From Sabellastarte sp. h YS-2021 (lineage: Eukaryota > Annelida > Polychaeta > Sabellida > Sabellidae), in contig OZ024931.1 of assembly GCA_964017235.1 (NCBI GenBank), forward strand, positions 94,459,721 through 94,523,720: a DNA stretch of 64,000 nt, given 5' to 3'. Shown here piece after piece: positions 2,033-63,819 of the stretch. The translations under genes and the position numbers were made by a program. The notes under the pieces were generated by a model. That model ran no database searches and was not told where the DNA came from. It was given only the letters and a program-made list of their open reading frames with translations. The number at the start of each line of letters is the position of its first letter. Within the stretch, counting starts at the first letter, position 1.

Positions 2033-3070
2033 TTTTTTTATGAATTTTTTAAATAAATTTTAATACATTAAAATTAATTAAATCATGCACTAAATCAATT
2101 ATAACTTGAAAAGTACTGCATTTAGAGCACTTTGTGCAAATATGTTATGCAGCTACTTTTGGGTCAGCTATAACATAGTAAAATTTCAGACCTGTAGCTC
2201 ATGGCATAGCTGAATAATAACTACTTTTAGGTTATCACTGTTGGGTAAATCACTTATAACTTGAAAACTTTTGCATTTACATTATTTAGTTTCAGTATGT
2301 TGTTCACCTATTTTGAGGCAGCTATAACATAGTAAAATTCCAGACCTGTGGCTCATTGCATAGCGGAGTAATAGCTACTTTGAAGTTCTTACTCAACACT
2401 AAATCATTTATAACTTGAAAAGTATTACATTTAGAGCATTTTGTTAAAATATGTCATTCACCTACTTTTTCCATAGCAACAACATGGTGAGTAACTTGGG
2501 TGTCTATCTGAATAGCTAAGTGAGTAATAGCTACTTTTGGGCTTTTCACTAACTTCCATCATGAGTAAAATCACTTGTAACTTGAAAACTATTGCATTTA
2601 GAGAATTTTGTGCAAATATGTTATTCACCTACTTTTGGGTCAGCTATAACATACTAAAATTTCAGACCTCTAGCTCGTGCCATAGCTGAGTAATAGCTAC
2701 TTTTGCCTTTGCCGGTGGATACATTTTGCGTCTGGCCACAGATGCATCCTTGGTCTAGTCTCTAAAAGTATTACAGGTGGGCAATTTCTTCTAAATAAGT
2801 CATTCACCTACTTTTGGGTGATCTACCACATAGTGAAGTTGCAGAACTGTAGCTCTTTAGATGGCAGAGTAATAGCCACTAAAATAAGTAAATGTCTTGT
2901 ATCTCTAAAAGTAGTACAGATAGGCTATTTCTTCTAAAGACGTGCTTCCCTACTTTGAGTTGATCTGCATAATGAAGTGGCAGAAGTGTAGCTCTTTGGA
3001 TGGCAAAGTAATAGCTACTAAAATGAGTAAATGCCTTTTGTCTTTAAAAGTATTGCAATCAAACATTAAA
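2033..3070. repeat. Diverged satellite, about 155-bp monomer
   Basis: Monomers carry words such as ACTTGAAAACTATTGCATTT, CAGCTATAACATAGTAAAAT and CATAGCTGAGTAATAGCTAC. They align with the 133-bp monomer but include about 22 extra bases (the GAGTAATAGCTAC part). Copies after 2720 are more degenerate. Confidence 0.85.
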
Positions 3071-3121
3071 CTTGTCACTTCTACATGTGCCTCCATCTCG
3101 TAGGAAAATTTATATTCCACT

Positions 3122-3182
3122 ATCTTTAGGACATCTAATTTATATGGCGGGAGATAAATACATGCGTGAGAATGCTTGTTTT
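3122..3182. repeat. 3' end of hairpin-ended element, ATCTCCCGCC family
   Basis: Contains the arm GGCGGGAGATAAA followed by a short hairpin (CAT...ATG around gcgtgaga) and then GCTTGTT. It nearly matches 22870-22928, where the 5' partner arm (ATCTCCCGCC) is also in the window. Here the 5' end lies off the left edge. Confidence 0.75.
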
Positions 3183-6200: not shown

Positions 6201-6345
6201 CTATTCACCAGAGTCATTACAAGTGAGGTATCCTCGCCCAAAGTATGAAAATTTCAACACTTTTCTCGGTGAGTTTTTCAGGAAATTCTCTCCTATCTTA
6301 CCTAAAAGAAACACTACCATAAGTAGATTCTGTTGTGTGAGTGTC

Positions 6346-7230: not shown

Positions 7231-7904
7231 TTATCTCCCGCCTGCGGCCGAAGGCTGTGGTCGGGAGATTATAAAATGCCTTCTGTCCGTGTGTCCATGC
7301 ATCCGTCCGTTCATCTCATTTTTGCATAAACCTTAATATGGCATTCATTTATAAAGATATCTTCACCAAATTTGCAGGGAATGTTTATGGCTGTGAAAAC
7401 CTGCCTCTGAAAAATTTTAGCTTCATTTTGAAAAACAAAATGGCCACCATAGCTAATTGTTTGAAAATTATAAAGGTGCTCTAAATCTTGAAATATCCCA
7501 GCTAGCTTCATTAAGCGTCCCGCAAGGGACGCTTGTTTGTGTATGGGAGAGCTTCAGGCTCCGCCGGCTCCGCATTTTGTTTTCCTTATAACTCTGTAAC
7601 CGTTAGGCGGATTCTTTTCAAATTTGGCAGGTTTAGGCAGTAGCCTTGGGGAATTTTTTTGAATATGCTGCAGTGACATTTCAACCAATCAGAGAGGTCA
7701 CATGACCAAAGATATCTTTTTTCGATGGGGAAGCTTGTCCGGATGATAACTTGAAAGGAATTTTATCAATTCACCTGAAACTTGGCAAATACATTCATTC
7801 TATTAAAATCTGGAAATCATTAGATTTTGGCATTGATTGGTCAAGAAATGGCCGAGTAATTAATGATTAATTAATCATTACGAATTTTCCAAATGAGGAA
7901 AACA

Positions 7905-8599
7905 CAAAAATGCTTATATCTCGAAAACCGTGCTAGATAGAGCGATTTCGACGAAATTTTTGACCCGCAGGGTATCTCTGCGGAGTAGTTTTCCCAATTT
8001 TCAAAAAAAATTTTGTCTCGTCCAAAATGGCGGCCATTTTGAATTTTCGAAATTTTCGCAAAAATTGCAAAACACAAAAATGCTTATATCTCAAAAACCG
8101 TGCTAGATAGAGCAATTTCGACAAAATTTTTGACCCGCAGGATGTCTCTGCGGAGTACTTTTCCCAATTTTCAAAAAAATTTTGTCTCGCCAAAAATGGC
8201 GGTCATTTTGAATTTTCGAAATTTTCGCAAAAATTGCAAAACACAAAAATGCTTATATCTCGAAAACCATGCTAGATAGAGCGATTTCGACAAAATTTTT
8301 GACCCACAGGGTATCTCTGCAGAGTAGTTATCCCAATTTTGAAAAAAATTTTGTCTCGCCAAAAATGGCGGCCATTTTGAATTTTCGAATTTTTCGCAAA
8401 AATTGCAAAACATAAAAATGCTTATATCTCGAAAACCCTGCAAGATAGAGCGATTTCGACGAAATTTTTGACCCACAGGGTATATCTGCAGAGTAGCCAT
8501 GCCAAGTTTCAAAAAAATTTTGTCTCGCCAAAAATGGCGGCCATTTTGAATTTTCGAATTTTTCGCAAAAATTGCAAAACATAAAAATGCTTATATCTC
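7905..8599. repeat. Tandem array, 169-170-bp monomer (left block)
   Basis: Four monomers with 'tgcttatatctc' at 7911, 8081, 8250, 8419 and again at 8588. Each contains a palindromic AAAATGGCGGCCATTTT and the words GATAGAGCGATTTCGAC and TTTTTGACCC. The LINE at 8600 interrupts it. Apparent reading frames on the minus strand are repeat translations, not genes. Confidence 0.95.
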
Positions 8600-10937
8600 A
8601 TTGTACTCGATTGATATACGACTTAATGTTTTACACTGAAAAACACCATATTCCGGGTTTACTGATGCAAATTGATTTCGAGAAAGCCTTCGATTCTGTA
8701 TCATGGAAATTCTTGTATAATGTATTGGAGTCTTTCGGTTTTGATGATAATTTTATCAAATGGGTGAAATTATTCAACACTGATATTAAAGCTTATGTTA
8801 CTCAATGTGGGTTTTTATCTGATCCTATTCTAATTGAGCGCGGATGTAGACAGGGGGACCCTCTTTCGCCGTACCTGTTTATACTTGTAGCAGAAGTGTT
8901 ATGCTCTTTAATCAGCAGATCCCCAAATGTGATAGGTTTATCAATTGGCAACACTGTGTTTAAGCTTACACAGTTTGCAGACGACACTACTTTGATTTTG
9001 GATGGCAGTGCAAACTCTTTGCAAGCAGCATTGAATATATTAGAGATATTTGGCGACATTTCAGGACTAAAAATAAACACGGAAAAGACAAAGCTAATCT
9101 GGATAGGAAGTGAGATATCTTCAACACAAAAGCTAAAAGTTTCACACAAACTGCAGTGGGGTGAAAACATTTTTAATTTATTGGGAATTAATTTCTCAAA
9201 TGATTTGAACATGTTACCAATTTTGAATTATCAGAATGCAATAAGTAAGGCAAAAAAAATTATCAATTCCTGGAAATATAGATACTTAACTCCCTTTGGG
9301 AAAATTACAGTAATCAAAACTTTGATTCTCTCTGTCTTCACCCACTTATTTATGGCAATTCCAACTCCAATAGGTATATTGAATGAAATAAATAAATTGT
9401 TGTTTAACTTTGTCTGGGATGGCAAGCCAGATAAAATTGGTAGAGACAGACTTTGCACTTCCCGGTTAAGCGGAGGACTGAATATGACTAATATATACAA
9501 TTTTGAAAAGTCAATGAAAACAAGATGGCTTAAACAAATGCTTATTTCAAATCATAAAAGTTGGCTTGACCTGCTTCAGAATGATATCAATTTGACCTTC
9601 TTTTCATCCTTAGGAAGCCAATGGTGCCTTTCTGTGATATACAAACTAAATCCGTTTTGGAAAACAGTATTTACATACTTTAATAAATTTAGTCAAAATG
9701 TAATGTACAAAACAAATCTTGATATTTTAAGTACAAATCTATGGTTAAATAAACCATTAGGAACAGAAAATATATATTTTGTAGACTGGTTTAAAAATGG
9801 GATACATGTTATTGGGGACATTGTAAAATCAGATGGTCATCTTCTAACACTAGATGAAATAAAGAACAGATTTGGGTTTAAACCAAATTTTTTGAATTAT
9901 TTTACTATGAGAAGTCTTTTGAAGAAATTTATTGAACAAAACTCTTTCGGTAACAATTTTGAGTTTCACAGACCATATATACCTTTGAATATTAGACTCT
10001 TAGTAGGCCCCCAAGCTGGAAGTAAAAATATCTACAAAGTCTTTCAACAGAGTTGTGGCATTGTTCCAAATAATGAATTAAAATGGAACCAGTCTTTAGA
10101 CTGTAATGTTATCCCATGGAGGCCATTGTATAAGAGTTGTTTTTATTCAATATTAGACAACCATTATGCATGGTTCCAATACCGCATCTTACACAGAATC
10201 CTTGGCGTTCAAGATCTGTTGTTTAAAATAAAGATATCGGATACAAACAAATGTAGACTGTGTGGAGAACAAAAGGAAACAATTATTCATCTTTTCACCG
10301 AGTGCAGAAAGTCAGTCGTTTTATGGGAAAATCTTCTATCTTGGATACATTCTAATGTTACTATTAGAATTGAATTGAATAAAGCTGATAAAATTTTGGG
10401 CTATGTGCAACCAGATTCAAATTTTTGGTCATTAAACTTAATACTCACAGTTACAAGGTACTATATTTTCACTTGCGCAAAGGCAACTCGCCAATTGAAT
10501 ATTTACCACTTGCAAAGTGTAATTAAACAGAAATATCTTGAACAAGAAACTCTATCAAAGCTAAGTAATAAAAATGATTTTTTTGAAAAAAATTGGTCTG
10601 TTTGGAAAAATATATTTATAAATATATAACTTAACCTTATCTTTAGCTTGTCTATTTTCCATATATCACTAGAATTAACGAAACACAGATCATGCAGGTG
10701 CTATACTGAACTGAATCATATATCAACAGTTTCATCCAAAATCAATGCTGAAGAGAGACATACATTTATCTTTGGGGCCTTTGTTGACTTACCTACCCAA
10801 ACCATAAATCAGTGGAGTAAAGAAACTTTGAACACTATGAATTGAGCTGTTATTGTTAAAGAATAGATGTATCTTTAATATGTTTCCTTATGTAACTATT
10901 ATACGCACATATACATGTTGTATACCCAAAAAGATCA

Positions 10938-10968
<31 letters not shown>
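8600..10968 (+). mobile_element. 5'-truncated non-LTR retrotransposon (LINE, L1/Tx1-like) with poly(A) tail
   Basis: An open frame continues to a stop at 10627-10629, then comes a 3' UTR of about 310 bp, AATAAA at the tail and about 29 A's. Target-site copies 'tgcttatatctc' flank it (8588-8599 and 10969-10980), so it inserted into a 169-bp satellite monomer. RT motifs include QIDFEKAFDSVSW (domain A), GCRQGDPLSPYLF and FADDTTLIL. A C-terminal zinc knuckle, CRLCGEQ...HLFTEC (CX2CX8HX4C), precedes the end. The endonuclease and start of the RT are missing. The open frame and matching target copies suggest a recent insertion. Clade assignment (L1/Tx1 versus a related LINE) is tentative. Confidence 0.93.
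8602..10629 (+). CDS. LINE ORF2 fragment: reverse transcriptase, thumb and zf-RVT
   Basis: About 675 codons without a stop. Domain A lies near 8673, the GDP/SPYLF domain near 8850 and the catalytic FADD near 8974, followed by a long linker domain and the CX2CX8HX4C knuckle near 10250. It encodes the enzyme that copies LINE RNA at a nicked target. The N-terminal apurinic-type endonuclease expected in this class is absent through 5' truncation, so it is not autonomous. The first in-frame ATG (8572) falls in flanking satellite and is not the native start. Confidence 0.9.
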   Translation, partial: CTRLIYDLMFYTEKHHIPGLLMQIDFEKAFDSVSWKFLYNVLESFGFDDNFIKWVKLFNTDIKAYVTQCGFLSDPILIERGCRQGDPLSPYLFILVAEVLCSLISRSPNVIGLSIGNTVFKLTQFADDTTLILDGSANSLQAALNILEIFGDISGLKINTEKTKLIWIGSEISSTQKLKVSHKLQWGENIFNLLGINFSNDLNMLPILNYQNAISKAKKIINSWKYRYLTPFGKITVIKTLILSVFTHLFMAIPTPIGILNEINKLLFNFVWDGKPDKIGRDRLCTSRLSGGLNMTNIYNFEKSMKTRWLKQMLISNHKSWLDLLQNDINLTFFSSLGSQWCLSVIYKLNPFWKTVFTYFNKFSQNVMYKTNLDILSTNLWLNKPLGTENIYFVDWFKNGIHVIGDIVKSDGHLLTLDEIKNRFGFKPNFLNYFTMRSLLKKFIEQNSFGNNFEFHRPYIPLNIRLLVGPQAGSKNIYKVFQQSCGIVPNNELKWNQSLDCNVIPWRPLYKSCFYSILDNHYAWFQYRILHRILGVQDLLFKIKISDTNKCRLCGEQKETIIHLFTECRKSVVLWENLLSWIHSNVTIRIELNKADKILGYVQPDSNFWSLNLILTVTRYYIFTCAKATRQLNIYHLQSVIKQKYLEQETLSKLSNKNDFFEKNWSVWKNIFINI

Positions 10969-10970
<2 letters not shown>

Positions 10971-11396
10971 CTTATATCTCGAAAACCTTGCTAGATAGAG
11001 CGATTTCGACGAAATTTTTGACCCACAGGGTATCTCTGCAGAGTAGCCATGCCAATTTTCAAACAAAAAATTTCTCGCAAAAACTGGCGGCCATTTTGAA
11101 TTTTCAAATTTTTCGCAAAATTGCAAAACACAAAAATGCTTATATCTCGAAAACCGTTCTAGATAGAGCGATTTCGACGAAATTTTTGACCCACAGGGTA
11201 TCTCTGCAGAGTAGCCATGCCAATTTTCAAAAAAATTTTGTATTGCCAAAAATGGCGGCCATTTTGAATTTTCGAATTTTTGCGCAAAAATTGCAAAACA
11301 CAAAAATGCTAATATTTCGAAAACCGTGCTACATAGAGCGATTTCGACGAAATTTTTTATCTTCAGGGTATCTCTGCAGAGCAGCTATCCCAAAGA
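10969..11396. repeat. 169-bp tandem array (right block)
   Basis: Continuation of the 7905-8599 array after the LINE, about 2.5 monomers, again with the GGCGGCCATTTT palindrome (near 11090 and 11255). It switches abruptly to 133-bp satellite after 'gcagctatccca'. Confidence 0.93.
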
Positions 11397-12686
11397 GCTT
11401 TCACTTGGTGAAGTTTCAGACCCATAGCTAATTGCTCACCTACTCAAAAAGAGTAAATGCGAATTACCTCTAAAAGTATTGCAGATGGCCAATTTTTCTC
11501 AAATAACTCATTCACCTACTTTTGGAAGAGCTTTCACTTGGTGAAGTTTCAGACCTGTAGCTAATTACTCACCTACTCAAAATGAGTAAATGCTAATTAT
11601 CTCCAAAACTATTGCGGATACCCAATTTTTATCAAATAACTCATTCACCTACTTTTGGAAGGGCTTTCACATGGTGAAGTTTCAGACCCATAGCTAATTA
11701 CTCACCTACTCAAAATGAGTAAATGCGAATTATCTCTAAAAGTATTGCAGATAGCCAATTTTTCTCAAATAACTCATTCACCTACTTTTGGGAGAGCTTT
11801 CACATGGTGAAGTTTCAGACCCATAGCTAATTATTTACCTACTCAAAATGAGTAAATGCTAATTATCTCTAAAAGTATTGCGGATACCCAATTTTTATCA
11901 AATAACTCATTCATCTACTTGTGGGAGAGCTTTCACATGGTGAAGTTTCAGACCCATAGCTAATTACTCACCTACTCAAAATGAGTAAATGCGAATTATC
12001 TCTAAAAGTATTGCAGATAGCCAATTTTTCTCAAATAACTCATTCACCTACTTTTGGGAGAGCTTTCACTTGAAGTTTCAGACCCATAGCTAATTACTCA
12101 CCTACTCAAAATGAGTAAATGCGAATTATCTCTAAAAGTATTGCAGATAGCCAATTTTTCTCAAATAACTCATTCACCTACTTTTGGGAGACCTTTCACT
12201 TGGTGAAGTTTTAGACCCATAGCTAATTACTCACCTACTCAAAATGAGTAAATGTGAATTATCTCTAAAAGTTTTGCAGATAGCCAATTTTTCTCAAATA
12301 ACTCATTCACCTACTTTTGGGACAGCTTTCACTTGGTGAAGTTTCAGACCCATAGCTAATTATTCACCTACTCAAAATGAGTAAATGTGAATTATCTCTA
12401 AAAGTATTGCAGATAGCCAATTTTTCTCAAATAACTCATTTACCTACTTTTGGGAGAGCTTTCACTCTGTGAAGTTTCAGACCCATAGCTATTTATTCAC
12501 CTACTCAAAATGAGTAAATGCGAATTATCTCTAAAAGTATTGCAGATAGCCAATTTTTCTCAAATAACTCATTCACCTACTTTTGGCAGAGCTTTCACTT
12601 GGTGAAGTTTCAGACCCATAGCTAATTACTCACCTACTCAAAATGAGTAAATGTGAATTATCTCTAAAAGTATTGCAGATAGCCAA
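11397..12686. repeat. 133-bp satellite block inside the 169-bp array (about 10 copies)
   Basis: Begins mid-monomer at 'aagagctttcac' and ends mid-monomer at 'gatagccaa', then 169-bp sequence resumes. Monomers are closely similar to those at 1-2032 and 21110-22760. No terminal arms or target duplication mark the block, so it looks like array transfer or unequal exchange, not simple transposition. Confidence 0.92.
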
Positions 12687-12770
12687 ATATAGCGGACATT
12701 TTTAATTTTTTTATTTTTTGCAAAACACAAAAATGCTTATATCTTGAAAACCGTGCTAGATAGAGCAGAC
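12687..12770. repeat. Residual 169-bp monomer
   Basis: Carries 'aaacacaaaaatgcttat' and 'gaaaaccgtgctagataga', then leaves the array at 'gcagactgcgctgac'. This shows the 133-bp block lies within the 169-bp array. Confidence 0.85.
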
Positions 12771-13529
12771 TGCGCTGACTTTGGTCGCCACAACAGTATA
12801 AGGCTAGAAACGAAGCATTTTCTTAATACTTTAGCACTCACCTTTATATCCTTTTCGGGACGCTTTGTTTTTGCTATGCAAAAACATTATCTTTTTTTTT
12901 GCGAGCGATCCTCTAGTTAAATTTGCACCAAAGCTATATGGCTAGAAAAGCTAACCTGATAGTAATTTTGGCCTAGTTCAAATAACAAAATGGCTGCCAT
13001 ATCACATGTTTAATGTCAAATGGGGTTATCCTATTAAAAAGGCCTGTTATCTCCCCTAAAATTGTTCCTAGAGCTTCGGAATGAGAAAACAACTTGTAGG
13101 AAGTCATGGCCAGGGAATCTTTTCCAGGTGTTGAATTTGACCTTTCACCCCTGCTTCAAGGTTAAATGAGGTCGGCACACTAAAACGTCCTTATTTCTCC
13201 CTTATCATTGGTGCTATGGCTTCAGAATATAAAGGCAGACCACCAAAGTCCTGGCCTTCAAATGTTTTACCCGAGATAAATTTTGGCCTTATTTTGAAAA
13301 ACATAATGGCCGCCATAGCCAATTATTTAAAAATCATTAAGATGCTCTAAAACTTGAAATATTGCAGCTAGGGTCATCAAATATGCGCAAAATATATATC
13401 TAGGAAAGTTTGACCCCTTCTTCAATGTCAGGTTGGGTTAACTTATTACAAAGGCCTTATATCTCCTTTAGTTCTCCATTATTACTGATTCTAAGGCGGG
13501 AGATAACCGCTGCAGCAGTGGCCTTGTTT

Positions 13530-13800
13530 CATGTAACATATTTTATTAGCAATTGGACAACAATCATACAAGTACAATTATATTAAGTCTTTTTGCAGGA
13601 CTTAAGGCATTTGGAGTATTTTGTTTATTTTTCCACCTACTTTTTCCACCTTCACAGTTAAGGTGGCACTTCTGAATACCATATGCAGGGCACAATTTTT
13701 GTGTCCTTTTCTTCTTTCACTTCCATTCTGAAACTCAAAACACAGCTGACACAGATCCCATTCATAGGCACTCATTGCTTGTTTGTTTATTTAATCAGTT
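13530..13800. repeat. End of about 155-bp satellite unit with 3' hairpin tail
   Basis: Resumes array-like words (ggcatttggagtattttg) and then the conserved tail 'cagggcacaatttttgtgtcc' to 'ggcactcattgcttgttt'. The same tail closes the arrays at 24733 and 63050. The GCACAAA...TTTGTG palindrome can form a hairpin. Confidence 0.75.
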
Positions 13801-14230
13801 TAATTTTTATACAGAGAATATGTATGAAGACAATTGTTTTTAATGTGATAATCACAACGGTAACAAATTAAGGAAAAAAGGCATAACATTATTTATGATT
13901 GTTTATGTATAATGAAATAATAAGAAAGAAAAATGCCAAAATACATCAATAAATTAAAAATGATACAAAATTCAACAATTTACAAGTAGACAACGTAAGA
14001 ACCAGGAATTCGTCTGTTTAATAAATGTGTAGATTGGGATGTCATCAATGCAAAACTTTTATGATCCCTTGAGTTTTTTTCTTCAGTACTCATTTTTACC
14101 TATCAGAGAAGTCGCATGACCAAAAACATGTTTTCAAAGGGGTGCACTGGTTTGGATGATAACTTAAAAAGCACTTCACCTATTCACAAAAAGATTTTAC
14201 AAGAAGATTTGTTATATAGATGTCGTGTGT
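13801..14230. other. Non-coding, with an AAGCGTCCC-family fragment
   Basis: Mostly AT-rich and unremarkable. 14095-14165 (tatcagagaagtcgcatgac, then gtttggatgataac) matches interior sequence of the elements at 7512 and 60216. A possible hAT-type end (TAGGGCTGCGAACGAGTAC) starts at 14227; its partner was not found. Confidence 0.5.
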
Positions 14231-14508
14231 AGGGCTGCGAACGAGTACTCGAGCCTCGGTGTACGAGGCGGTCTTGGCTTGCACTCGAGTCCATTTTAAA
14301 AACTTGGTTACTCGCGAGGTATTGTATTATCGCCCACGTAATCAAACGCTTGTGATTCTTCGCGATTATCACCCACAAAATAAACTGCATCATATTTTGA
14401 CACATTACACCCTATAAAACAGCTTAGCTAAACAATAGAAAAATATGATATATTCTATAATAAAATCATAGAACGTAAAAAATGACTCCCCCAAAACAAT
14501 TTCATCGA

Positions 14509-14912
14509 CAGGGTGTATCCAGTCATGGAAAACTTAGAAAAGTCATGGAATTCCATTATTTTTTTCCAGGCCTGGAAAAGTCATGGAAATTGACTCCAGG
14601 TTTTGGAAAAATCATAAAAAAGTCATGGAAAGTAAAAGGCATCCTTTTGTGAAATGGCGTTGTTCCTTTCTTTAATCCAGCATTTCAATACAAGGATATG
14701 TTTATGTAATCAGATCAAAGTTTTGGTGTCTTTCTCATCTTCCTGTACTGTGAGTGGAACCTTGTGAGTGGTTCTCAAAGGCAAAACCGGTGGGAGCTTG
14801 TGTCTCTTTCATGCCACGAAGAATGTAAAATGTCCTTAATTTTAAAGCTTTGGTCATGGAGAAGTCATGAAAAAGTCATGGAAAAAATATTGAATTTAGT
14901 GGATACACCCTG
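14509..14912. mobile_element. MITE, 404 bp, perfect 12-bp termini CAGGGTGTATCC
   Basis: Starts CAGGGTGTATCC and ends GGATACACCCTG, a perfect inverted pair. It is flanked by CATCGA on both sides (14503-14508 and 14913-14918), consistent with a 6-bp target duplication. The interior is crowded with copies of 'aagtcatggaaa' and 'aagtcatgaaa'. CAGGG ends suggest a hAT relative; the 6-bp duplication fits only some hAT groups, so the superfamily is open. Confidence 0.8.
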
Positions 14913-14918
14913 CATCGA

Positions 14919-16134
14919 GTTTATAGATTAAAGATAAAATAGTCTGTTTAATTTTCTGGTCAGCTAACTGAAGTGTGATTGTCTACTGGTTAACCATTAA
15001 CTCACTGTAATTGCTTTACTCACATTTTTCCGGCTGTATTATTGACCTTACAACAAATGAACATTAACCTTGTTTTCAAATACATGAAATCATCATTCTT
15101 TACAGCCTAATGAGAAGTTATTTGCCTCAGTATTGAACTTCTATCATCAAATATGCATCTTTTTGACATAATCCTCACTAAAAATAAAAAAAATAAATAG
15201 GAACCTTTAAAATCAATATTTAAATGTTACATAATGCTAAGGGTACACAAGGTAAATGTTGCAGGATTTTAATAATTACTTTGTTTATACTACCAGCCTC
15301 AGCTTAACAATATAAATATAATATGCACTCTACATAGAAATAAGTTGAAATGACAAAACATAAGAAGTGGCTCTCAATACAGTTTTAAGTATATAGATTA
15401 AAGATGAAACAGTCTGTTAATTTTAACTTTTAATAAGATTCAAGGGACAAAGTGATGGTCCATGGCTACTTTCATCATTTTCATGCAGTTTCTTAGATTC
15501 TAAAGAGATTGAAAACATTTTCACTGACATGAATGATAGTTTGCATGTAGCACTATTTTCTTGGTTTTACAAAAAAAAATCACATAAGCTATAATTTTGT
15601 ATGTATAAGAGACAAATTGTGCTTTCTGTAAGGCTTTATGTGGCTTACCTGTGTTGGGGTGGTGGTGTCAGCTATTTTGGCAGTTGCAAAGATGGAGTTG
15701 TAAATCTATCCACTGGATGTCTTTGGTGGGTACTTTGGATTATCTTCATCTATACTGCTACTGTGACGGTGTGTAGAGACTCAACACTCTCATGCTAAAA
15801 GTTTTATGCCTAGGCTTCTCATATTTATAGTATATGTTTTTTTTATTCAGAAAACAAAAGAAATATGCATGAGAATATTTTTGGCTCATTATGAAAAAGA
15901 AGATGGCTGTCGCGGCCATTTTTTGAACATTTTTTTTTTTGTACAGACAAACTGTGGCTGTTGGTTCTCGGCTGCAGAAGGTGGTTAAATCTCTTGATAG
16001 TAGACATGCTAAACAGATAAAAATCTATGTGCCCTCTATATGCCTTAATGCATCTAACTTGGAGGCTCTTCAGTGAAGGTCATCCACAGAGTGTCTCAGT
16101 TACTCCACTGAATCAGTTTTGGTCAAACTTCAAT
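14919..16134. other. Non-coding, AT-rich
   Basis: No coding evidence, exon or recognised repeat. Short frames at 15601-15988 lack splice or family support. Confidence 0.5.
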
Positions 16135-16760
16135 TGCCTGTATCTTGCTTATTACTGATCAAAGACGTTTGGGATCTCAAACAAACCAATGGGAAATGCT
16201 GGCTGGGATTCTTTTGATCTCAAATTTGACCTTGGACCCAGCCAGAGTAAAAAAGGAGTATCCAAACTTTTAAATGCTTATAACTCTGTTATCATTGATC
16301 TATAGGCTTGGCATGTCAGACCAACCAGCAGAAAGTCATTGTTTCGAATTCCATTATTTTTTGTGTAGTCAGATTGACCTTTGACCAAATGAGTTTGGCC
16401 AGACTTAAAACATGCTTACAGCTGAGTTATTATGGATCCTGGCAGTTTGGGATTTGAAACAATGAGCTGGAATTCATAATCTTAAAACATTTTGATTAAT
16501 AATGTGTCCTGGAGGTTTCGATTTTGAAACTAACCCATAAGAAAAATTGTGCTGGAATTCATTTCTTCAGATTTAACCCTGGGCCCCTCCTATAAGGTCA
16601 AATGAGTGTAGCCAATCTCGAAAAAATATTATGTCTTGCTTATTATTGGTTCTCCACCAATGTGGTTTATGATGTCAAATCAACCTATGTGAAATCATAG
16701 GCTCTGAGTTATTTGATGAAGTCAGGTTTGACCTTTGCCCCTAGCATGTTGTAAGGTAAA
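16135..16760. repeat. Degenerate tandem repeat, unit roughly 110-150 bp
   Basis: Recurring words such as 'cttattactgatc', 'taactctgttatcattgatc', 'gagttattatggatcc' and 'cttattattggttct' are spaced 110-150 bp apart. Each is followed by a 'tttgaccttggaccc'-like segment. The style is that of the 146-bp array at 36770-37930 but more decayed. Confidence 0.6.
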
Positions 16761-17386
16761 TTGCTTGTTGACTATGGTTCTTTATCTTTCTGGTGGACAC
16801 AGACTGATATGCATTGCTTCTCAGATGGACTAGGTCTAGTTTTTTAGGAATAAATACAGCATGTGAAACATTCTTTTTGAGGTGGATGGTATTTCACTAG
16901 CCAGTCTTTTGGGATCGTTTTCACTAACATGTATGTTGTGCAAGTGTAATTGCCGTATTCTGTCAGCAGTGACTGGTATGTCATCGTGTGATTGAAAAAT
17001 TATCAGATATTTTTCTGTTTGTGACTGGTATTTCTGTTTGAATAATGATTAAAAAGTTCACCCTTACGACTAGCTTGTATCATAAGTTAGTTGTGCATTA
17101 CACACATAGTACTCTGATTTTACGATTGTTGTTGACATGAATTAAGTTGTTTGGTTGGATTTCCTTCAATTTAAGTTTCAGGGTTATTCTATCATAAAAG
17201 TTTTGCTAAAAAATGATTGACAAAAGTTGTGAATTGTGAGTGTTAAGTGCATAAATAATGCATATAATGTGTAATGTAACATTGCATGTTTTGTATAGTT
17301 GCAAAAACTGGGTGTAACCTGCAAGCAGGATGTCAGGTGGTGTGTGATGTATTCCCAAATGACTATACAACACTTAATGCTCGTTA
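16761..17386. other. Non-coding, nothing recognised
   Basis: AT-rich sequence with no exon, repeat family or RNA gene that can be supported. Confidence 0.5.
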
Positions 17387-17400
17387 AACAGTATACTTTG

Positions 17401-17513
17401 TTGTCACCTCTGTGGGTTCGAGTCCCACAAGTGGCAATGCTGAGGACCTGTCCCAATATGACCCTGGCTGTTGAACGGGACGTTAAACCCCAACTTTGAC
17501 TTTGACTTTGACT
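17401..17513 (+). mobile_element. tRNA-derived SINE (113 bp, 5'-truncated) with 14-bp TSD
   Basis: Contains a pol III B box (GGTTCGAGTCC) within a tRNA-like arm, then 'ctgttgaacgggacgttaaa', a phrase common in molluscan SINEs. It ends in a (ctttga)n tail. AACAGTATACTTTG flanks it at 17387-17400 and 17514-17527. No clear A box, so it is probably truncated. Confidence 0.85.
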
Positions 17514-17701
17514 AACAGTATACTTTGCATATCCATGTATATTCTTGGTGCTTATTTGTATATTAGGATGTCAGATTTAACTATTAAATAACAACCTATG
17601 TTATTTAGTAGTTAATACATTAGCGAAAAGTAGGAAATTGGACCAGGTAGATACTTAAATTTGCCACCAGGCTTTGATGTACCTAAATCATCTGCGAGCA
17701 T

Positions 17702-18077
17702 TAGTGCTGGTATTGTTTATCGATATTGAAATATTTATCGATTCACGCTACATTTGCCGATATCAATAATGTAGAGTATAATATCAATATCGAAACATAC
17801 CACTTAACAGGTACAAATATCATGTTTTTCATTCAAATAAAGGACAATATTTGAAGAATATATTGGTTTTCCTACTATTTTTGTCATCTTTCACTTACCA
17901 CTAAACCGGAAATGCCATATTTGTTTATGTTTCGGGAAATACTAAACCTCGCGAAAGAGTTTGGAAGGTCTCCCCCAAGAAAGCATCTAATACCCCGATA
18001 TTTCAATATCGATCAATACGCAAGGCAAAAATATGGTTTAATATCGATGTGCATATTATTATTCGATACCAACACTA
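17702..18077. mobile_element. hAT-like MITE (376 bp) with 8-bp TSD GCGAGCAT
   Basis: Ends TAGTGCTGGTATTG and GATACCAACACTA are inverted copies. GCGAGCAT is duplicated at 17694-17701 and 18078-18085. The interior is rich in ATCGAT/GATATCG words. No transposase. Confidence 0.87.
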
Positions 18078-18439
18078 GCGAGCATGGGCGTATAATTGAA
18101 CGTAATTGAACTGTTAATGCCTGTAAACGTGATAAAAAGTACTACATATAAAAACCATAAATAGTATACCTCACAATATTATAGAATAGTGATTTTTATT
18201 TAATAATCTATGTCTAAAATCCCAGTATTTTTATCTCCCGCCGGGCTTTAGCCCGGGAGGGAGATTATGAAATGATGTCTGTGTGTGCGTGCGTGCGTGT
18301 GTGCGTGCGTTGGTTAGTCACGCAGATTTCTCCAAAACTACTACAGCTACAGATTTTTTGTAAATTAATTGTCCCAATGAATTTTCATGCCCTTGAAAAT
18401 TTTTTTGGTTTTATTGACTTAGGCCTAAAGATAACTGAG

Positions 18440-21110
18440 TAATAGCAATCTTAGCTACTTTGAGTAAAGGGCTCATAACTCAAAAACTATTGCAGTAACA
18501 ACTTTTTCTTCAAATATGTTGTTCAGCTACTTTGTCCTTAGCTATAAGATGGTACATAGTTTGGGGTCCCATTGCATGCCATAAGTGAGTAATAGCTATT
18601 TTCTCATTTGTAGCTAAATAACAGAAGAAGTAAATGTCAAATATCTTCAAAAGTATTAAAGTTAGGGAAATCTTTTCAAATATGTTGTCCATCTTCTTTT
18701 TGGTAAGCTATGACATAGTAAAGTTTCAGACCTGTTGCACCTTGGATAGCTGAGTAATAGCTACTTTGAAATTCTGACTGGTGAGTAAAGCTATTGTAAC
18801 TCCAAAACTATTGCAGTTAGAGTATTTTCCTAAAATATGTTGTTCAGCTACTTTGTTCTTAGCTATAAGATGGTACATAGTTTGGGCTTCTATTGCATGC
18901 CATAAGTGAGTAATAGCTATTTTCTCATTTGTAGCTAAATAACAGAAGAAGTAAATGTCAAATATCTTCAAAAGTATTAAAGTTAGGGAAATCTTTTCAA
19001 ATATGTTGTCCATCTACTTTTTGGTAAGCTATGACATAGTAAAGTTTCAGACCTGTTGCACCTTGGATAGCTGAGTAATAGCTACTTTGAAATTCTGACT
19101 GTTGAGTAAAGCTATTGTAACTAAAAAAGTATTGCAGTTAGAGTGTTTTCCTAAAATATGTTGTTCACCTACTTTGTTCTTAGCTATAAGATGGTACATA
19201 GTTTGGGGTTCTATTGCTTGCCATAAGTGAGTAATAGCTATTTCCTCATTTGTAGCTAAATAACAGAAGAAGTAAGTGTCAAATATCTTCAAAAGTATTA
19301 AAGTTAGGGAAATCTTTTCAAATATGTTGTCCATCTACTTTTTGGTAAGCTATGACATAGTAAAGTTTCAGACCTGTTGCACCTTGGATAGCTGAGTAAT
19401 AGCTACTTTGAAATTCTGACTGTTGAGTAAAGCCATTGTAACTCCAAAACTATTGCAGTTGGAGTATTTTCCTAAAATATGTTGTTCAGCTACTTTGTTC
19501 TTAGCTATAAGATGGTACATAGTTTGGGGTTCTATTGCTTGCCATAAGTGAGTAATAGCTATTTTCTCATTTGTAGCTAAATAACAGAAGAAGTAAATGT
19601 CAAATATCTTCAAAAGTATTGAAGTTAGGGAAATCTTTTCAAATATGTTGTCCATCTACTTTTTGGTAAGCTATAATGTAGTAAAGTTTCAGACCTGTTG
19701 CACCTTGGATAGCTGAGTTATGGCTACTTTGAAATTCTGACTGTTGAGTAAAGCCATTGTAACTCCAAAACTATTGCAGTTAGAGTATTTTCCTAAAATA
19801 TGTTGTTCAGCTACTTTGTCCTTAGCTATAAGATGGTACATAGTTTGGGGTTCTATTGCATGCCATAAGTGAGTAATAGCTATTTTGTTATTTGTAGCAA
19901 AATCATGACATAAGTAAATGTCAAATATCTTCAAAAGTATTAAAGTTAGGGAATTCTTTTCAAATATGTTATCCATCTACTTTTTCATAAGCTATGACAT
20001 AGTAAAGTTTCAGATCTGTTGCACATTGGATAGCTGAGTAATAGCTACTTTGAAATTCTACAGTTGAGTAAATCCATTGTAACTCCAAAACTATTGCAGT
20101 TAGAGTGTTTTCCTAAAATATGTTGTTCACCTACTTTCTCCTTAGCTATAAGCTGGCATGTAGTTCGGGGTTCTATTGCATGCCATAAGTGAGTAATAGC
20201 TATTTTCTTATTTGTAGCAAAATAATGACATAAGTAAATGTCAAATATCTTCAGAAGTATTAAAGTTACGGAATTCTTTTCAAATATGTCATTCATCTAC
20301 TTTTTTGTAAGCTATCACATAGTAAAGTTTCAGACCTGTTGCACATTGCATAGCTAAGTAATAGCTACTTTGAAATTGTGACTGTTGAGTAAATCCATTG
20401 TAACTCCAAAGCTATTGCAGCTTTTTCTTCAAATATGTTGTTCAGCTACTTTTTCCTTAGCTATAAGATGGTACATAGTTTGGGGTTCTATTGCATTCCA
20501 AAAGTGAGTAATAGCTATTTTCTTATTAGTAGCAAAATAATGACATAAGTAAATGTCAAATATCTTCAGAAGTATTAAAGTTACGGAATTCTTTTAAAAT
20601 ATGTCATTCATCTACTTTTTTGTATGCTATCACATAGTAAAGTTTCAGACCTGTTGCACATTGCATAGCTAAGTAATAGCTACTTTGAAATTGTGACTAT
20701 TGAGTAAATCCATTGTAACTCCAAAACTATTGCAGTTACAGCTTTTTCTTCAAATATGTTGTTCAGCTACTTTGTCCTTAACTATAAGATGGTATATATT
20801 TTGGGGTTGTATTGCATGCCATAAGTGAGTAATAGCTATTTTCTTATTTGTAGCAAAATAACAACATAAGTAAATGTCAAATATCTTCAAAAGTATTAAA
20901 GTTAGGGAAATATTTTCAAATATGTTATTCATCTATTTTTTGATAACCTATCACATAGTAAAGTTTCAGACCTCTTGCACATTGGATAGCCGAGTAATAC
21001 CTACTTTGAAATTGTGACTGTAGGGTAAATGCATATAGTTTGGGGTTCTATTGCATGCTATAAGTGAGTAATAGCTATTTTCTTATTTGTGGCAAAATAA
21101 TGACATAATT
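18440..21110. repeat. Higher-order satellite, 321-bp dimeric unit (about 8 copies)
   Basis: Near-identical units repeat every 321 bp (for example homologous positions 18726, 19047, 19368 and 19689). Each unit is two diverged halves of about 160 bp, one with 'tttcagacctgttgcacctt' and one with 'agatggtacatagtttgggg'. Both halves align with the 155-bp monomer. Minus-strand frames of 95 codons are by-products of the repeat. Copies after 20300 are more diverged. Confidence 0.93.
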
Positions 21111-22760
21111 TTTCTCAAATAACTGCTTCATCTACTTTTGGGAGAGCTTTCACATGGTGAAGTTTCAGACCCGTAGCTAATTATTCACCCACTCAAAATG
21201 AGTAAATGATAATTATCTCTAAAAGTATTGCGGATATCCAATTTTTATCAAATAACTCATTCATCTACTTTTGGGAGAGCTTTCACATGGTGAAGTTCCA
21301 GACCCATAGCTAATTACTCACCTACTCAAAATGAGTCAATGTGAATTATCCCTAAAAGTATTGGGGATATCCAATTTTTCTTAAATAACTCATTCACCTA
21401 CTTTTGGAAGAGCTTTCACTTGGTGAAGTTTCAGACCCGTAGCTAATTATTCACCTACTCAAAATGAGTAAATGCTAATTATCTCTAAAAGTATTGTGGA
21501 TATCCAATTTTTATCAAATTACTCGTTCATCTACTTTTGGGAGAGCTTTCACATGGTGAAGTTCCAGACCCGTAAGCTAATTACTCGCCTACTCAAAATG
21601 AGTAAATGTGAATTATCTGTAAAAGTATTGCAGATATCCAACTTTTCTCAAATAACTTATTCACCTACTTTTGGGAGAGCTTTTACTTGGGGAGGTTTCA
21701 GACCCGTAGCTAATTATTCACCTACTCAAAATGAGTAAATGTGAATTATCTCTAAAAGTATTGCGGATATCCAATTTTTATCAAATAACTCATTCATCTA
21801 CTTTTGGGAGGGCTTTCACATGGTGAAGTTCCAGACCCGTAGCTAATTACTCACCTACTCAAAATGAGTAAATGTGAATTATCCCTAAAAGTATTGGAGA
21901 TATCCAATTTTTCTTAAATAACTCATTCACCTACTTTTGGAAGAGCTTTCACTTGAAGTTTCAGACCCGTAGCTAATTATTCACCTACTCAAAATGAGTA
22001 AATGCTAATTATCTCTAAAAGTATTGTGGATATCCAATTTTTATCAAATTACTCGTTCATCTACTTTTGGGAGAGCTTTCACATGGTGAAGTTCCAGACC
22101 CGTAGCTGATTACTCACCTACTGAAAATGAGTAAATGTGAATTATCTCTAAAAGTATTGCAGATAGCCAATTTTTATCAAATAACTCATTCACCTACTTT
22201 TGGGAGAGCTTTCACTTGGTGAATTTTCAGAGCCGTAGCTAATTATTCACCTCCTCAAAATGAGTAAATGCCAATTATCTCTAAAAGTATTGCGGGTATC
22301 CAATTTTTATCAAATTACTCGTTCATCTACTTTTGGGAGAGCTTTCACATGGTGAAGTTCCAGACCTGTAGCTAATTACTCACCTAATCAAAATGAGTAA
22401 ATGTGAATTATCTGTAAAAGTATTGCAGATAGCCAATTTTTCTCAAATAACTCATTCACCTACTTTTGGGAGAGCTTTCACTTGGTGAAGTTTCACACCC
22501 GTTGTTAATTATTCACCTACTCAAAATGAGTAAATGCGAATTATCTCTACAAGTATTGCAGATAGCCAGTATTTCTGAAATAACTCATTCACATACATTT
22601 TGGAGAGCTTTCAATTAGTGAATTTTCAGATCCGTAGCTAATTACTCGCCTACTCAAAATGAGTAACTGCCTATTATCACTAAAAGTATTGCAGATAGCC
22701 AATATTTCTCAAATAACTCATTCACCTACATTTTGGAGAGCTTTCACATGCTAAATTTTT
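21111..22760. repeat. 133-bp satellite array (about 12 copies)
   Basis: Same family as 1-2032 and 11397-12686. A subset alternates between 'gatatccaatttttatcaaa' and 'gatagccaatttttctcaaa' forms, hinting at a two-monomer higher-order pattern. It ends with 'gagctttcacatgctaaa' and a short 155-type segment. Confidence 0.93.
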
Positions 22761-22928
22761 TTAATGAATTTTTTAAATAATTTTTAATGCATTAAAATTC
22801 ATGAAATCATGCACTAAATCAATTATAACTTGAAAAGTATTACATTTAGAGCACCTTGTTAAAATATGTTATCTTTAGTACATCTAATTTATATGGCGGG
22901 AGATAAATGCATGCGTCAGAATGCTTGT

Positions 22929-23340
22929 TCTTCATAAAATAAATGTATTGCTAATGTAACGATACCCAGTCAAATGTATTTCACCCGCCATATTCATGCT
23001 CAGAACCCTTGAAACTTCTCTGATTGTGGAATTCCCACTTCTATTGGGCATTTTTTTAATGTTTTTGCAATAGTTAAAATTATGCACTTTTTGTGACATA
23101 CAGGGGATGATACTTAAGTAAAATATGCATCAAAATCCCCCAAACAATCTGGCCTTTGTTTTTTGTTGTAAAGGATTGGCATTTACATATATTTCATGTG
23201 TTTTTGGAGATGGAAGATAATATGAACATGTGCGCTTCTGCGAATGATTTCGGTAGTAACGTATTATCTCTTGTCTTCTGATTATCTAAAAGAGATTGTG
23301 TGAGTCGATTAAGGCTGATGATAAATCGTAAAATCCATGC
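22929..23340. other. Non-coding, nothing recognised
   Basis: Short unique-looking stretch between satellite blocks. No exon or RNA feature seen. Confidence 0.5.
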
Positions 23341-24737
23341 AGCTCTGTTTGTCTAGTGTGTAATAGCTACTTTCTAACTTTTCAGTACCTTCCATAATGA
23401 GTAAAATCACTGGTAACTCGAGAATTTTGTATAAAAATGTTATTCAGCTACTTTTGGGTCAGCTATAACATACTGTTAGTAAAACTGCAGACCTGTAACT
23501 CATTGCATAGCTGAGTAATAGCCACTTTGAGGATATCACTGTTGAGTAAATTCCTTATAACTTGAAAATTGTTGCATTTAGAGAATTTTCTTTAAATATG
23601 CCATTCATGTAGCTTTAAATCAGCTCTAACATAATGAAATTACAGACCTGTAGTTATGGCATAGTTGAGCAATAGCTATTTCAGGTTCTCATTGTTGAGT
23701 AAATCAGTTGTAACTTAAAAACTATTGCGTAAACAGTATTTTGTTTAAGTATGTTATTCACCTACATTTCTGTCAGCTATAACATGCTGAAATTGCAGAC
23801 CTGTGGCTCATTGCATAGCTGAGCAACAGCTATTTCAGGTTATCACTGTTAAGTAAATCAGTTGTAACTTGAAAACTATTGCATTTAGAGTATTTTGTTT
23901 AAATATGTTGTTCACCTACTTTTGGGTCAGCTATAACAATGAAATTGCAGACCTGTAGCTCATGGCATAGCTGAGAAATAGCTATTTTCAGGTTCTCACT
24001 GTTGAGTAAATCATTTATAATTTGAAAACTATTGCATTTATAGTATTTTGTTTAAATATGTTCTTCACCTACTTTTCTGTCAGCTATAACATAGTGAAAT
24101 CGCTGACTTGTAGCTCATTGCATAGCTGAGCTGTATCTACCGGTGCCGCGCTCTTTATCGCTCATGCGTTTGTAAGCGCCCATCCACAATCTTACGTTAT
24201 CGCCCATAAATTGCTAATATATCGTTTTGATGTACACTTTCTCCATAAAAACCCAATAATTGGTCAAATTTGATTAATTTATATCTATTTTCAACAAAAT
24301 CTTCCTTATTTTAGTTATTATATCACCTTTTATTGTGATGAGATTTGTTTACCAACCGCATATTTTACTTCCAGTCAGTATGTCCTAAAATGCAGTTTCC
24401 CCAAATTCATGTTATTTTTCTCAAAACGCCCAGCTGGTTGTCGTTGTCGTAAACGCCCATCCTTAACTTTTGCAAATATTTGGTCACATTGCCCATGGGC
24501 GCTACAGAGCGCGGCACCGGTACTTTCAGAGTATAGCTGTTGAGTAAATCAGTTGTAACTCGAAAACAGTTGCACTTACAGTATTTTGTTTAAATAGGTT
24601 TTTTTCTACCTACATTTTACACCTTAACAGGTAATTTGGTACTTCTGAATACCATTTACAGGGCACAAATTTTGTGTGCTTTTCTTTATTCACTTTTACT
24701 CTGAAACTTACGGGCACTGATTGCTTGTTTTAAATAT
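23341..24737. repeat. Satellite array, about 155-bp monomer, with 3' tail
   Basis: About seven monomers, then the tail 'cagggcacaaattttgtgtg' to 'gggcactgattgcttgtttt'. A MITE at 24140-24520 is inserted into one monomer. Confidence 0.88.
24140..24520. mobile_element. MITE (381 bp) with perfect 15-bp TIRs, flanked by TA
   Basis: Ends CCGGTGCCGCGCTCT and AGAGCGCGGCACCGG are perfect inverted repeats, flanked on both sides by TA. Removing the element and one TA restores a satellite-like 'tctactttcag'. A TA duplication is typical of Tc1/mariner-type elements; the superfamily is inferred only from this. It is more GC-rich than its host array and has no transposase. Confidence 0.85.
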
Positions 24738-24761
24738 TTGCAGTGTAAATTTACAGTTTTA

Positions 24762-25592
24762 CCAACCCACCTATTAGATAGATGTGTCCGACGTCCATCT
24801 GTTCGTCCACATTTTCGTTTCCAGACTCTAACTCGAAAACGGTTTGTCCAATCAAATTCAAACTTGACAGGGATATAGATCACCATCATAGCTAGGTTCC
24901 TTTTGAAATCGGTGTAATTCCGTACGTTCGCTTGTCCGTTTTTTGTCTGTTTGTCTGTCTGTCAACATTTCTGTTTCCGGACTCTAACTCGAAATCTGTC
25001 AAAATTTCTGTTTTCGGTCTCTAACTCGAAAACGTTTTTTCCAGTCGAATTCAAACTTGACAGGAAGATGAATCACCATCACAGCTAGGTTCCTTTCGAA
25101 ATTGGTGTAATTCCGCCTGTTGATTTGTCTGTTTTTTTTTGTCCGTCTGTCCATCAAGATTTCCATTTCCGGACTCTAACTCGAAAATGCTTTGTCCAAT
25201 CAAATTCAGGGACATAGATCACTTTGACATTGGTGTAATTCCGTCTGTTCGTTTGTCCGGTTTTTGTCTGTTCGTCAACAATTCCGTTTCCTGACTCTAA
25301 CTCGAAAACGGTTTGTCCAATTGTATTCAAACTTGACAGGGACATAGATCACCATCATAGCTAAGTTGCTTTCGAAATTGGTGTAATTTCGTCCTTTCGT
25401 TTGTCCGTTTATGGCATAGATACAATTATGTAACCTAGATTACAAGTTTTACATTTCTTAGCACGCCTAACACATTCACCTTAACTGGGTGACCTAACAT
25501 TTCTTTCCTTGTTTCTAAATTTAATTACAGCAGTCGCTAACCTTATTGCTGCCTGCTCAACCTGCCTTTTGGGATATCTTTGACCCTCTTGT
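24762..25592. repeat. ACCAACCCACC-family repeat element (copy 1)
   Basis: Opens 'accaacccacctatt', then 'gtccgacgtccatctg' tracts. About four tandem units follow (gactctaactcgaaaacg, ttcaaacttgacaggg, gatcaccatcatagctaggt), then a conserved 3' segment (atgtaacctagattacaag to gaccctcttgtt). A second copy lies at 49043-49849. It has no coding region. Confidence 0.8.
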
Positions 25593-26312
25593 TATATACA
25601 TGTCATCGATATCGGCAAACCAGCCCCAAAACAATAAATATCGGCAGTATCGATAAGAGTGCCACTACCTACAATAAGTTGATCTTAAACCCCCCAAAGT
25701 AACTTCACTATAATGAATTTAAGGTTATCATTTTAAAGGCCCAAACAAATAGAATTGACTTGATATATTTGATTTCCTCATCGTGTCTCGATGTATATTG
25801 ACCATAGGTGGATACCTTAAGGCAACCTTGACCTTCCAACGTTAAATTTAATTCCTCTTTTAGCAGTAGGGTTAATTCTCTGAATCCCATATCTAGTTCT
25901 GCTTGGTTTGTAATATCTCTTCAGGTCTATGGATGTTCAGGGACTCCAAATTTTGAAAGAATTACTGCTACAGGTGTTTAAGATCAGTTCTAAGAAATTC
26001 TGAAAAAGTAGTGAGTCTTATATTGTAAACAATATTTGCCATGTACCTTTTGTTATTTACAGCAGTTTAAACGTTAGACTATAAAATTCTTGCTTCTTTA
26101 GTCCTTGTTAAGATAATAAACGCTTTTACTTCTTTGGAAGCTTTCATTGAGATTCTATTATTTTTATATGTAGTGAACAACATGTTTGATCTTTCAATAA
26201 CACACTGTTCTTTAAAATCCTCATGCTTTCTAATGGACAAATGTTCCTAGATGAGGTTTTTTCCATTGGTTTGATTTAGATGGTGCTGCTACTTCATTTT
26301 ATCTTTTTGTAG
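25593..26312. other. Intron sequence upstream of first confirmed exon
   Basis: Contains a small ATCGATA-rich patch (25600-25665) that may be a decayed hAT-like end. Otherwise unremarkable up to the acceptor tttttgtag. Confidence 0.5.

Positions 26313-63819
<37,507 letters not shown>

What the first reader, a model, noticed from the sequence alone, without database searches (positions are those of the whole stretch)
7231..63177. Several unrelated-looking repeat families share one terminal architecture
At least four families have a 5' arm plus its immediate inverted copy (a hairpin), a second inverted-arm copy near the 3' end, then a small hairpin and a T-rich or CTAGTT end. Examples: ATCTCCCGCC (7231, 18231, 51073), ACCCCACAGCC (36658, 57366), ATATCCCCAGAC (38017) and AAGCGTCCC (7512, 60216). 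A fifth (49043) has the 5' hairpin only. The arm sequences differ between families, but position and pairing are kept. This resembles non-autonomous Helentron/HINE elements, possibly moved by one replicase that reads structure more than sequence.
Basis: partly seen in the sequence, partly recalled or inferred. Interest (0 to 1): 0.72.

Follow-up and report, generated by a model that had tools for sequence, protein, structure and literature searches.

The report
Clam rolling-circle transposon families (HINEs)
These repeats are several families of protein-less passenger copies of rolling-circle transposons, a kind already known from oysters and flies; here one family is matched to a longer copy that carries the copying enzyme, and most of the families turn out to share an internal sequence as well as a shape.

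Summary
At each cited place there is a 5' arm plus inverted copy (hairpin), a distal inverted arm and a small hairpin before a T-rich end, with microsatellite and tandem repeats between. Fetched genome copies of A1, B, C, D and E start, and A1, B, C and D stop, at the arms; they insert next to TT, and the cases testable (A1, D) show no target duplication. This is the published anatomy of HINEs, non-autonomous Helentrons, described in oyster as Cg_HINE. The 'fifth' family (49043) does have a 3' end, at 49814-49847.

Three further points. (1) Family E shares its 5' hairpin, repeats and last ~186 bp with a ~12.3-kb element in the same genome whose 2245-aa frame encodes Ulp1-Rep-PIF1-endonuclease: E's probable autonomous partner. 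The oyster study could not relate one to its HINEs. (2) Five sampled Rep loci are 31-54% identical, so 'one replicase reading structure' is not supported; partners of A-D were not found. (3) B-E (and a further family F) share a ~46-nt oriented core just after the microsatellite (0 of 300 shuffles each; 955 genome matches against 0 for the reversed pattern). A1 and A2 are not significant there.

New member of a known kind.

The parts
1..3178 (+). A2-type element, 5' end outside the window; 133-, 154- and 139-bp repeats, distal arm GGCGGGAGAT at 3146-3155, ends GCTTG before TT
7233..13526 (+). A1 element interrupted by a nested D element; 5' hairpin 7233-7269, distal arm 13495-13504, terminal hairpin, end CCTTG before TT
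7509..12916 (+). D element (CATTAAGCGTCCC...CTAG before TT), nested in A1; joined flanks match the uninterrupted A1 at 51075 with 4-5 host bases missing and no duplication
8600..10968 (+). Not part of the HINE: truncated LINE (reverse transcriptase frame 8497-10626, poly-A) nested in D's 169-bp array, 17-bp duplication AAAAATGCTTATATCTC at 8583-8599 and 10964-10980
18233..22927 (+). A2 element; 5' hairpin, 321-bp then 133-bp repeats, distal arm 22895-22904, end GCTTG before TT
24762..25591 (+). E-family copy with lost 5' arm (inverted copy CCAACCCACCT kept), 3' end CCCTCTTG before TT
36658..41743 (+). B element interrupted by a nested C element; distal arm 41709-41719, hairpin GCATCTCTGATGC, end CTATTTTT
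38017..41284 (+). C element (ATATCCCCAGAC hairpin ... GTCTGGGGATAT, hairpin, CTAGTTTAAT), nested in B
49043..49847 (+). E element: AGGTGGGTTG hairpin, microsatellite, 145-bp repeats, 3' arm 49814-49823, end CCCTCTTG before TT; family of the autonomous element found on contig C3
51075..52228 (+). uninterrupted A1 element
57366..58423 (+). B element, diverged copy
60217..63175 (+). D element, diverged copy, ends CTAG before TT
7586..7631 (+). shared 46-nt core, D
36771..36816 (+). shared 46-nt core, B (also within the 146-bp monomer)
38103..38148 (+). shared 46-nt core, C
49120..49165 (+). shared 46-nt core, E
57443..57488 (+). shared 46-nt core, second B copy
60302..60347 (+). shared 46-nt core, second D copy

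Best explanation
The families are HINEs, non-autonomous Helentrons, spread by rolling-circle transposition. Inferred mechanism: the Rep (HUH, two-tyrosine) nuclease of an autonomous Helentron cuts at the 5' boundary, next to TT and beside the 5' hairpin; the PIF1 helicase peels off one strand; the 3' arm and terminal hairpin mark the stop; the strand joins into a TT-containing target without duplicating it. Because the 5' arm can pair either with its neighbour or with the 3' arm, the arms could also hold the two ends together (inference). Each family is most likely moved by its own autonomous relative that shares its end sequences; for E a candidate was found. The common shape is a property of the whole superfamily. 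Shown: anatomy, boundaries, TT context, lack of duplication in A1 and D, the E candidate's coding capacity and shared ends. Inferred: the enzymatic steps and the partners of A-D.
For: 5' boundaries: D 12 of 12 fetched copies share TTCATT-AAGCG and diverge before it; B 10 of 10 TTTTT-ACCCC; C 10 of 10 TATTT-ATATCCCC; E TT directly before the arm in 9 of 10 (not L142). 3' ends: D CTAGTT in 21 of 21 (19 fetched, 2 window); A1 CTTGTT in 26 of 29 fetched; B CTATTTT in 11 of 12 (10 fetched, 2 window); C CTAGTTTAAT in 10 of 10. These are top hits of searches whose queries held the ends, and a few share host flanks (L047/L048, L075/L077, L119/L121, L127/L129, L138/L140/L141), so the informative point is where similarity stops. 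A1 whole copies: TT at -2,-1 in 19 of 19 and no excess of direct repeats over re-paired flanks (94.7% of 1000 permutations at least as high). Two empty-site views: D in A1; and C, 5' junction only, in one copy of the Rep gene after TTTATT where three sister copies read TTTATTTTGG. E partner: on C3:168665376-168682636 an E hairpin (and a second 600 bp on), E repeats, an open frame of 2245 aa and E's last 186 bp at 86.6% and 84.9% identity to the window copies. Its pieces match Peptidase_C48, Helitron_like_N, PIF1 and Exo_endo_phos and hold HLHCLFW and YIASYIMK (motif meaning recalled). Three of ten fetched E copies carry before their 5' end the same sequence as that element's second 5' end. Apart from D's nested LINE no element has a frame over 104 aa.
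Against: No partner was found for A, B, C or D; sequence beyond 1.5 kb was read for only 5 of 24 Rep loci (L009, L010, L015, L018, L021), and on both sides for only two (L010, L015). The ends of the E-type autonomous element were not checked against its sister copies. Within-family covariation in the A1 hairpin does not exceed shuffles, and E arm changes look like CpG decay. One of 19 A1 copies (L008) has a 10-base direct repeat TTTATTTATT at its ends. D's insertion in A1 lost 4-5 host bases. The 3' junction of C in the Rep copy was missed. C has six constant bases beyond CTAG. A1 and A2 begin A-TC, which alone would fit the Helitron rule.
Confidence: 0.92

Rival explanations
1. One replicase moves all the families, recognising hairpin position and pairing more than base sequence.
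For: All families keep the same layout although arms differ. B-F also share an internal core, which a single enzyme could recognise.
Against: The one resolved autonomous element carries the arms and 3' end of E by sequence. Five sampled Rep loci show 31-54% protein identity.
Confidence: 0.08
2. They are MITE-like or foldback cut-and-paste elements whose inverted ends are bound by a transposase.
For: Subterminal inverted arms; the bivalve relative Pearl was first called a MITE (PMC7492417 passage). One A1 copy has a 10-base direct repeat at its ends.
Against: No excess of duplications in 19 A1 copies; D-in-A1 empty site shows none; asymmetric ends; an E-ended element encodes Rep-helicase-endonuclease.
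Confidence: 0.02
3. Canonical Helitrons (Helitron1 type) rather than Helentrons.
For: Rep-PIF1 protein; D and C end in CTAG, which fits CTRR; A1 and A2 begin A-TC.
Against: B, C, D and E have no 5' TC; C's empty site is T-T, not A-T; subterminal inverted arms; endonuclease domain in the same frame; A and E end in CTTG.
Confidence: 0.03

Closest known systems
Cg_HINE elements of Crassostrea gigas (PMC7492417; passages and part 2 of 7 of the text seen)
   Same: 5' subTIR, neighbouring IR, microsatellite (often GTCY/GTCC), satellite-like tandem repeats, 3' subTIR then palindrome, no target duplication, oligo-T targets; several families with different ends
   Different: Other families. That study could not relate any of ten autonomous elements to its HINEs, whereas here E has a candidate. 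C and A2 monomers are longer (350 and 321 bp) than the oyster's 138-181 bp
DINE-1 / HINE and Helentrons of flies, mites and mosquitoes (PMC4067079; passages seen)
   Same: subTIRs, IR, 3' stem-loop, TT insertion, autonomous partner with Rep-helicase-endonuclease
   Different: E's partner also has a Ulp1-type domain; another Rep locus here (L009) has an OTU domain, which the paper mentions for Helentrons
Helitron1 (canonical; features from passages of PMC4067079)
   Same: Rep-PIF1 protein, 3' hairpin, CTAG-type end in D and C, A-TC start in A1/A2
   Different: TT target, inverted subterminal arms, endonuclease domain

Membership tests
HINE (non-autonomous Helentron) | 5' subterminal inverted repeat with a neighbouring inverted copy | tested here: met
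   A1, A2, B, C, D, E (A2 in the window only)
HINE (non-autonomous Helentron) | 3' copy of the arm followed by a palindrome near the end | tested here: met
   E arm mismatched in the window copies, better matched in the C3 element
HINE (non-autonomous Helentron) | no target-site duplication | tested here: met
   A1: 19 copies, no excess; one copy has a 10-base repeat. D: one empty site. Not testable here for B, C, E (one end read per copy)
HINE (non-autonomous Helentron) | insertion at TT / T-rich | tested here: met
   5' TT in A1 19/19, D 12/12, B 10/10, C 10/10, E 9/10; C in a TT site by its 5' junction
HINE (non-autonomous Helentron) | no coding capacity of its own; microsatellite and tandem repeats inside | tested here: met
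   longest frame 104 aa or less in each element, except 710 aa in D (and so in the A1 around it), which is a nested LINE; repeats
HINE (non-autonomous Helentron) | shares ends with an autonomous Helentron | tested here: inconclusive
   met for E; not found for A-D, 5 of 24 Rep loci read beyond 1.5 kb
Helentron (the C3 element) | Rep + PIF1 helicase + fused AP-type endonuclease in one protein | tested here: met
   PF14214, PF05970, PF03372 (24.2 bits, just under its 24.5-bit cut-off) in pieces of one 2245-aa frame
Helentron (the C3 element) | demonstrated transposition | not testable with these tools
   needs an experiment; four copies at about 99% identity suggest recent activity
Helitron1 | 5' TC, 3' CTRR, insertion between A and T | tested here: not met
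   B, C, D, E lack 5' TC, A and E end CTTG, C's empty site is T-T; A1/A2 alone do begin A-TC

The most novel reading that the evidence does not exclude
The 46-nt core just inside the 5' end (TAWCTCnnAAACnnT...ATTnnnTTCAAACTTGG) is a working part of Helentron DNA, for instance a replication or Rep/RPA loading site. It is kept in orientation and position in families whose arms have diverged beyond recognition, and it was multiplied into the central satellite arrays because extra copies help transposition. If so, the satellite-like repeats of bivalve HINEs are arrays of a transposition signal, not passive cargo.
Probability: 0.25. Interest if true: 0.68.

Novelty: new member of a known kind. Interest (0 to 1): 0.45.

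Why it matters
HINEs carry much of the scattered satellite DNA of oysters, and what moves them there has been open: the oyster study could not relate an autonomous partner. A family-partner pair in one genome makes the recognition question testable (which parts of the ends does the Rep read?). A core shared by families with different arms gives a sequence handle for finding HINEs, and a reason to ask why their satellites exist.

Tried and rejected
Counting the architecture in the window alone: too weak, dominated by tandem repeats. Within-family covariation of the A1 hairpin: 22 sequences, not above shuffles. Autonomous partner of A: L010 has A2-type repeats in antisense after its Rep frame, but no A arm was found in its own locus or in the 2.8 kb fetched upstream; L009 is followed about 0.4 kb after its stop by a decayed A2-type 5' hairpin. 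Both may be neighbouring insertions and I claim no link. L150 (downstream of L018) shows frames that look to me like a LINE (by eye, not searched); L151 (downstream of L021) gave no lead. C-in-B as an empty site: the host B copy is too diverged. A duplication around C (TATAAATTAATT on both sides) was rejected as target duplication because the host has a 23-bp tandem repeat there. Rfam on the window: no match at gathering score. PDB search with the L015 segment: no match at E 0.01. Core: A2's 5' site scores worse than most shuffles (272 of 300), A1 44 of 300; in the earlier profile test with 100 shuffles B z 5.6, E 8.1, A2 5.2, D head 7.6, C 3.5 (barely above the best shuffle), A1 2.3 and D169 1.0 (not significant). 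Pairwise alignments of whole repeat units: beyond the A2 units among themselves, 5 of 42 pairs exceeded all 60 shuffles. A long frame inside D, found only on re-checking, proved to be a nested LINE, not a captured gene.

Full report
Setting. The window is G000:C5:94459721-94523720 in a 1.786-Gb, 647-contig genome.

Observation. Every cited arm is present within 1-2 bases, some as diverged copies. The families are A1 and A2 (ATCTCCCGCC), B (ACCCCACAGCC), C (ATATCCCCAGAC), D (AAGCGTCCC) and E (AGGTGGGTTG). D is nested in A1 and C in B; D itself holds a truncated LINE with poly-A and a 17-bp duplication. E has a 3' end after all (49814-49847), and a second E copy ends at 25591. The six 5' hairpins fold at z -4.4 to -6.4 against shuffles; the 3' hairpins of A1, B, C, D and E at -2.1 to -5.6. 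A window-only count is weak evidence.

Genome copies. Each search scored only its 40 best candidates and I read 10-30 of them per end, not a random sample; for A2 only window copies, for E's 3' end only three copies, and for A1's 5' end seven fetched copies besides those in the whole-copy set. At the 5' side similarity begins at the arm or a few T/A bases before it: D 12 of 12, B 10 of 10, C 10 of 10; E has TT directly before the arm in 9 of 10, three of the ten sharing one flank. At the 3' side it stops after the small hairpin: D CTAGTT 21 of 21; A1 CTTGTT 26 of 29 fetched; B CTATTTT 11 of 12; C CTAGTTTAAT 10 of 10; E CCCTCTTGTT in 3 of 3. The queries contained these ends, so the constancy of the motif is partly selected; the place where similarity stops is not. 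Some copies share host flanks (listed under evidence). Nineteen distinct whole A1 copies have TT before the element in 19 of 19; direct repeats between flanks are no commoner than in re-paired flanks, though one copy, L008, has a 10-base T-rich repeat. D in A1 gives an empty site: the joined flanks match the intact A1 at 51075 apart from 4-5 missing bases. C follows TTTATT in one Rep gene copy, three sister copies reading TTTATTTTGG; its other junction was missed.

Autonomous partner. PF14214 finds 24 Rep matches in the genome. L012, L014, L015 and L017 are about 99% identical over what was read. Around L015 I read 17.3 kb. It has an E hairpin at position 1317 and again at 1917, E repeats to about 2460, a 2245-aa open frame at 6157-12891, and E's 3' end at 13399-13584 (86.6% and 84.9% identical to the two window copies). 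Pfam gives Ulp1 protease, DUF6570, Helitron_like_N, PIF1 and Exo_endo_phos, the last at 24.2 bits against a cut-off of 24.5. Three of ten fetched E copies (L138, L140, L141) have the same sequence before their 5' end as the element's second 5' end, consistent with a shared doubled start; the nearest Rep match is tens of Mb away. This is a Helentron with the ends of family E. Thomas et al. (PMC4067079, passages) describe such pairs in mites, mosquitoes and flies; the oyster study (PMC7492417, passages and one part) reports that it could not relate its ten autonomous elements to its HINEs. In five paper searches, of which I saw the listings, no title or abstract start reports such a pair in a bivalve; only open-licence papers are held. 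Of two further oyster papers (PMC11136912, PMC8268682) I saw passages.

One replicase or several. Rep segments of five loci (199-1187 aa) are 31-54% identical in protein. An endonuclease follows the helicase region in L015 and L009 by Pfam and in L010 by eye. This fits one partner per family. Partners of A-D remain unknown; only 5 of 24 loci were read beyond 1.5 kb, and two A2-like neighbours (L009, L010) could not be resolved.

Not unrelated after all. A 46-column profile made from the other families finds the same oriented core in each of B, C, D, E and a further family F (L072) at 66-114 nt from the 5' end, just past the microsatellite, with 0 of 300 shuffles reaching the score. F was itself found with an earlier profile and its start set by eye, so its score is not independent. 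In A1 and A2 the best plus-strand hits lie at 86 and 92 but are not significant (44 and 272 of 300). The core is also in the consensus monomers of the B and E arrays (by eye) and, by a profile that left A2 out, in A2's array (z 5.2). In 355 kb of held sequence 115 hits fall in nine flank clusters, four of them single hits and several belonging to the training families, against 0, 0 and 1 in shuffles. Genome-wide the pattern CTCNNAAACNNTN7ATTNNNTTCAAACTTG has 955 exact matches and its reverse 0; how many families these represent is unknown. The training cores were chosen by eye, which leave-one-family-out only partly offsets. The oyster paper notes two conserved segments shared between some of its monomer clusters, which may be the same thing; I could not compare sequences. 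Shared ancestry explains the core as well as function does.

Arms. The arms differ between families and pair within them, but inside A1 the changes do not co-vary beyond shuffles. E's C/T and G/A arm variants fit CpG decay (inference). Each arm begins with A after TT in the copies shown, apart from the exceptions named.

Verdict. Ordinary in kind: several HINE families of the Cg_HINE type. The added value is the E partner and the shared core.

Noticed in passing
window 8600-10968: 5'-truncated LINE (RVT_1 and zf-RVT, poly-A, 17-bp duplication) inside the D array; it landed within a copy of the core-like stretch TTATATCTC-GAAAACC. Three-level nest: LINE in D in A1.
   Followed up: yes
window about 59076-59350: Coding sequence that looks like a myosin heavy-chain coiled coil ([41 protein letters not shown]), named from memory; the Pfam call failed for frame reasons.
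   Followed up: no
C3:168666692 and C3:168667292: The autonomous E-type element has two 5' ends 600 bp apart in the same orientation; three short E copies have the same sequence before their 5' end. Fits rolling-circle tandem insertion with loss of an inner 3' end.
   Followed up: partly
L012 and window 38017-41284: A C-family HINE has inserted in the Rep domain of one copy of the E-type autonomous element: one family's passenger broke another family's engine.
   Followed up: partly
L153, L010, L149, L152: A second Rep lineage whose end is followed by A2 133-bp repeats in antisense; fly Helentron-Da-40 also has Rep in reverse orientation (PMC4067079 passage), so this could be an A2 partner.
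   Followed up: partly
window 36762-37933: B monomers are rich in TGACCTTTGACC-like motifs, which resemble nuclear-receptor sites (recalled).
   Followed up: no
window 34542-34689 and 48208-48356: Inverted repeat pairs, 93 and 55 bp arms at 96-99%, about 13.5 kb apart; another repeat family, not examined.
   Followed up: no
L013:3302-3333: Hairpin ATTGTATCCCCAGCGTAAAGCGGGGATACTAT downstream of a broken Rep: probably the 5' end of a further HINE family.
   Followed up: no
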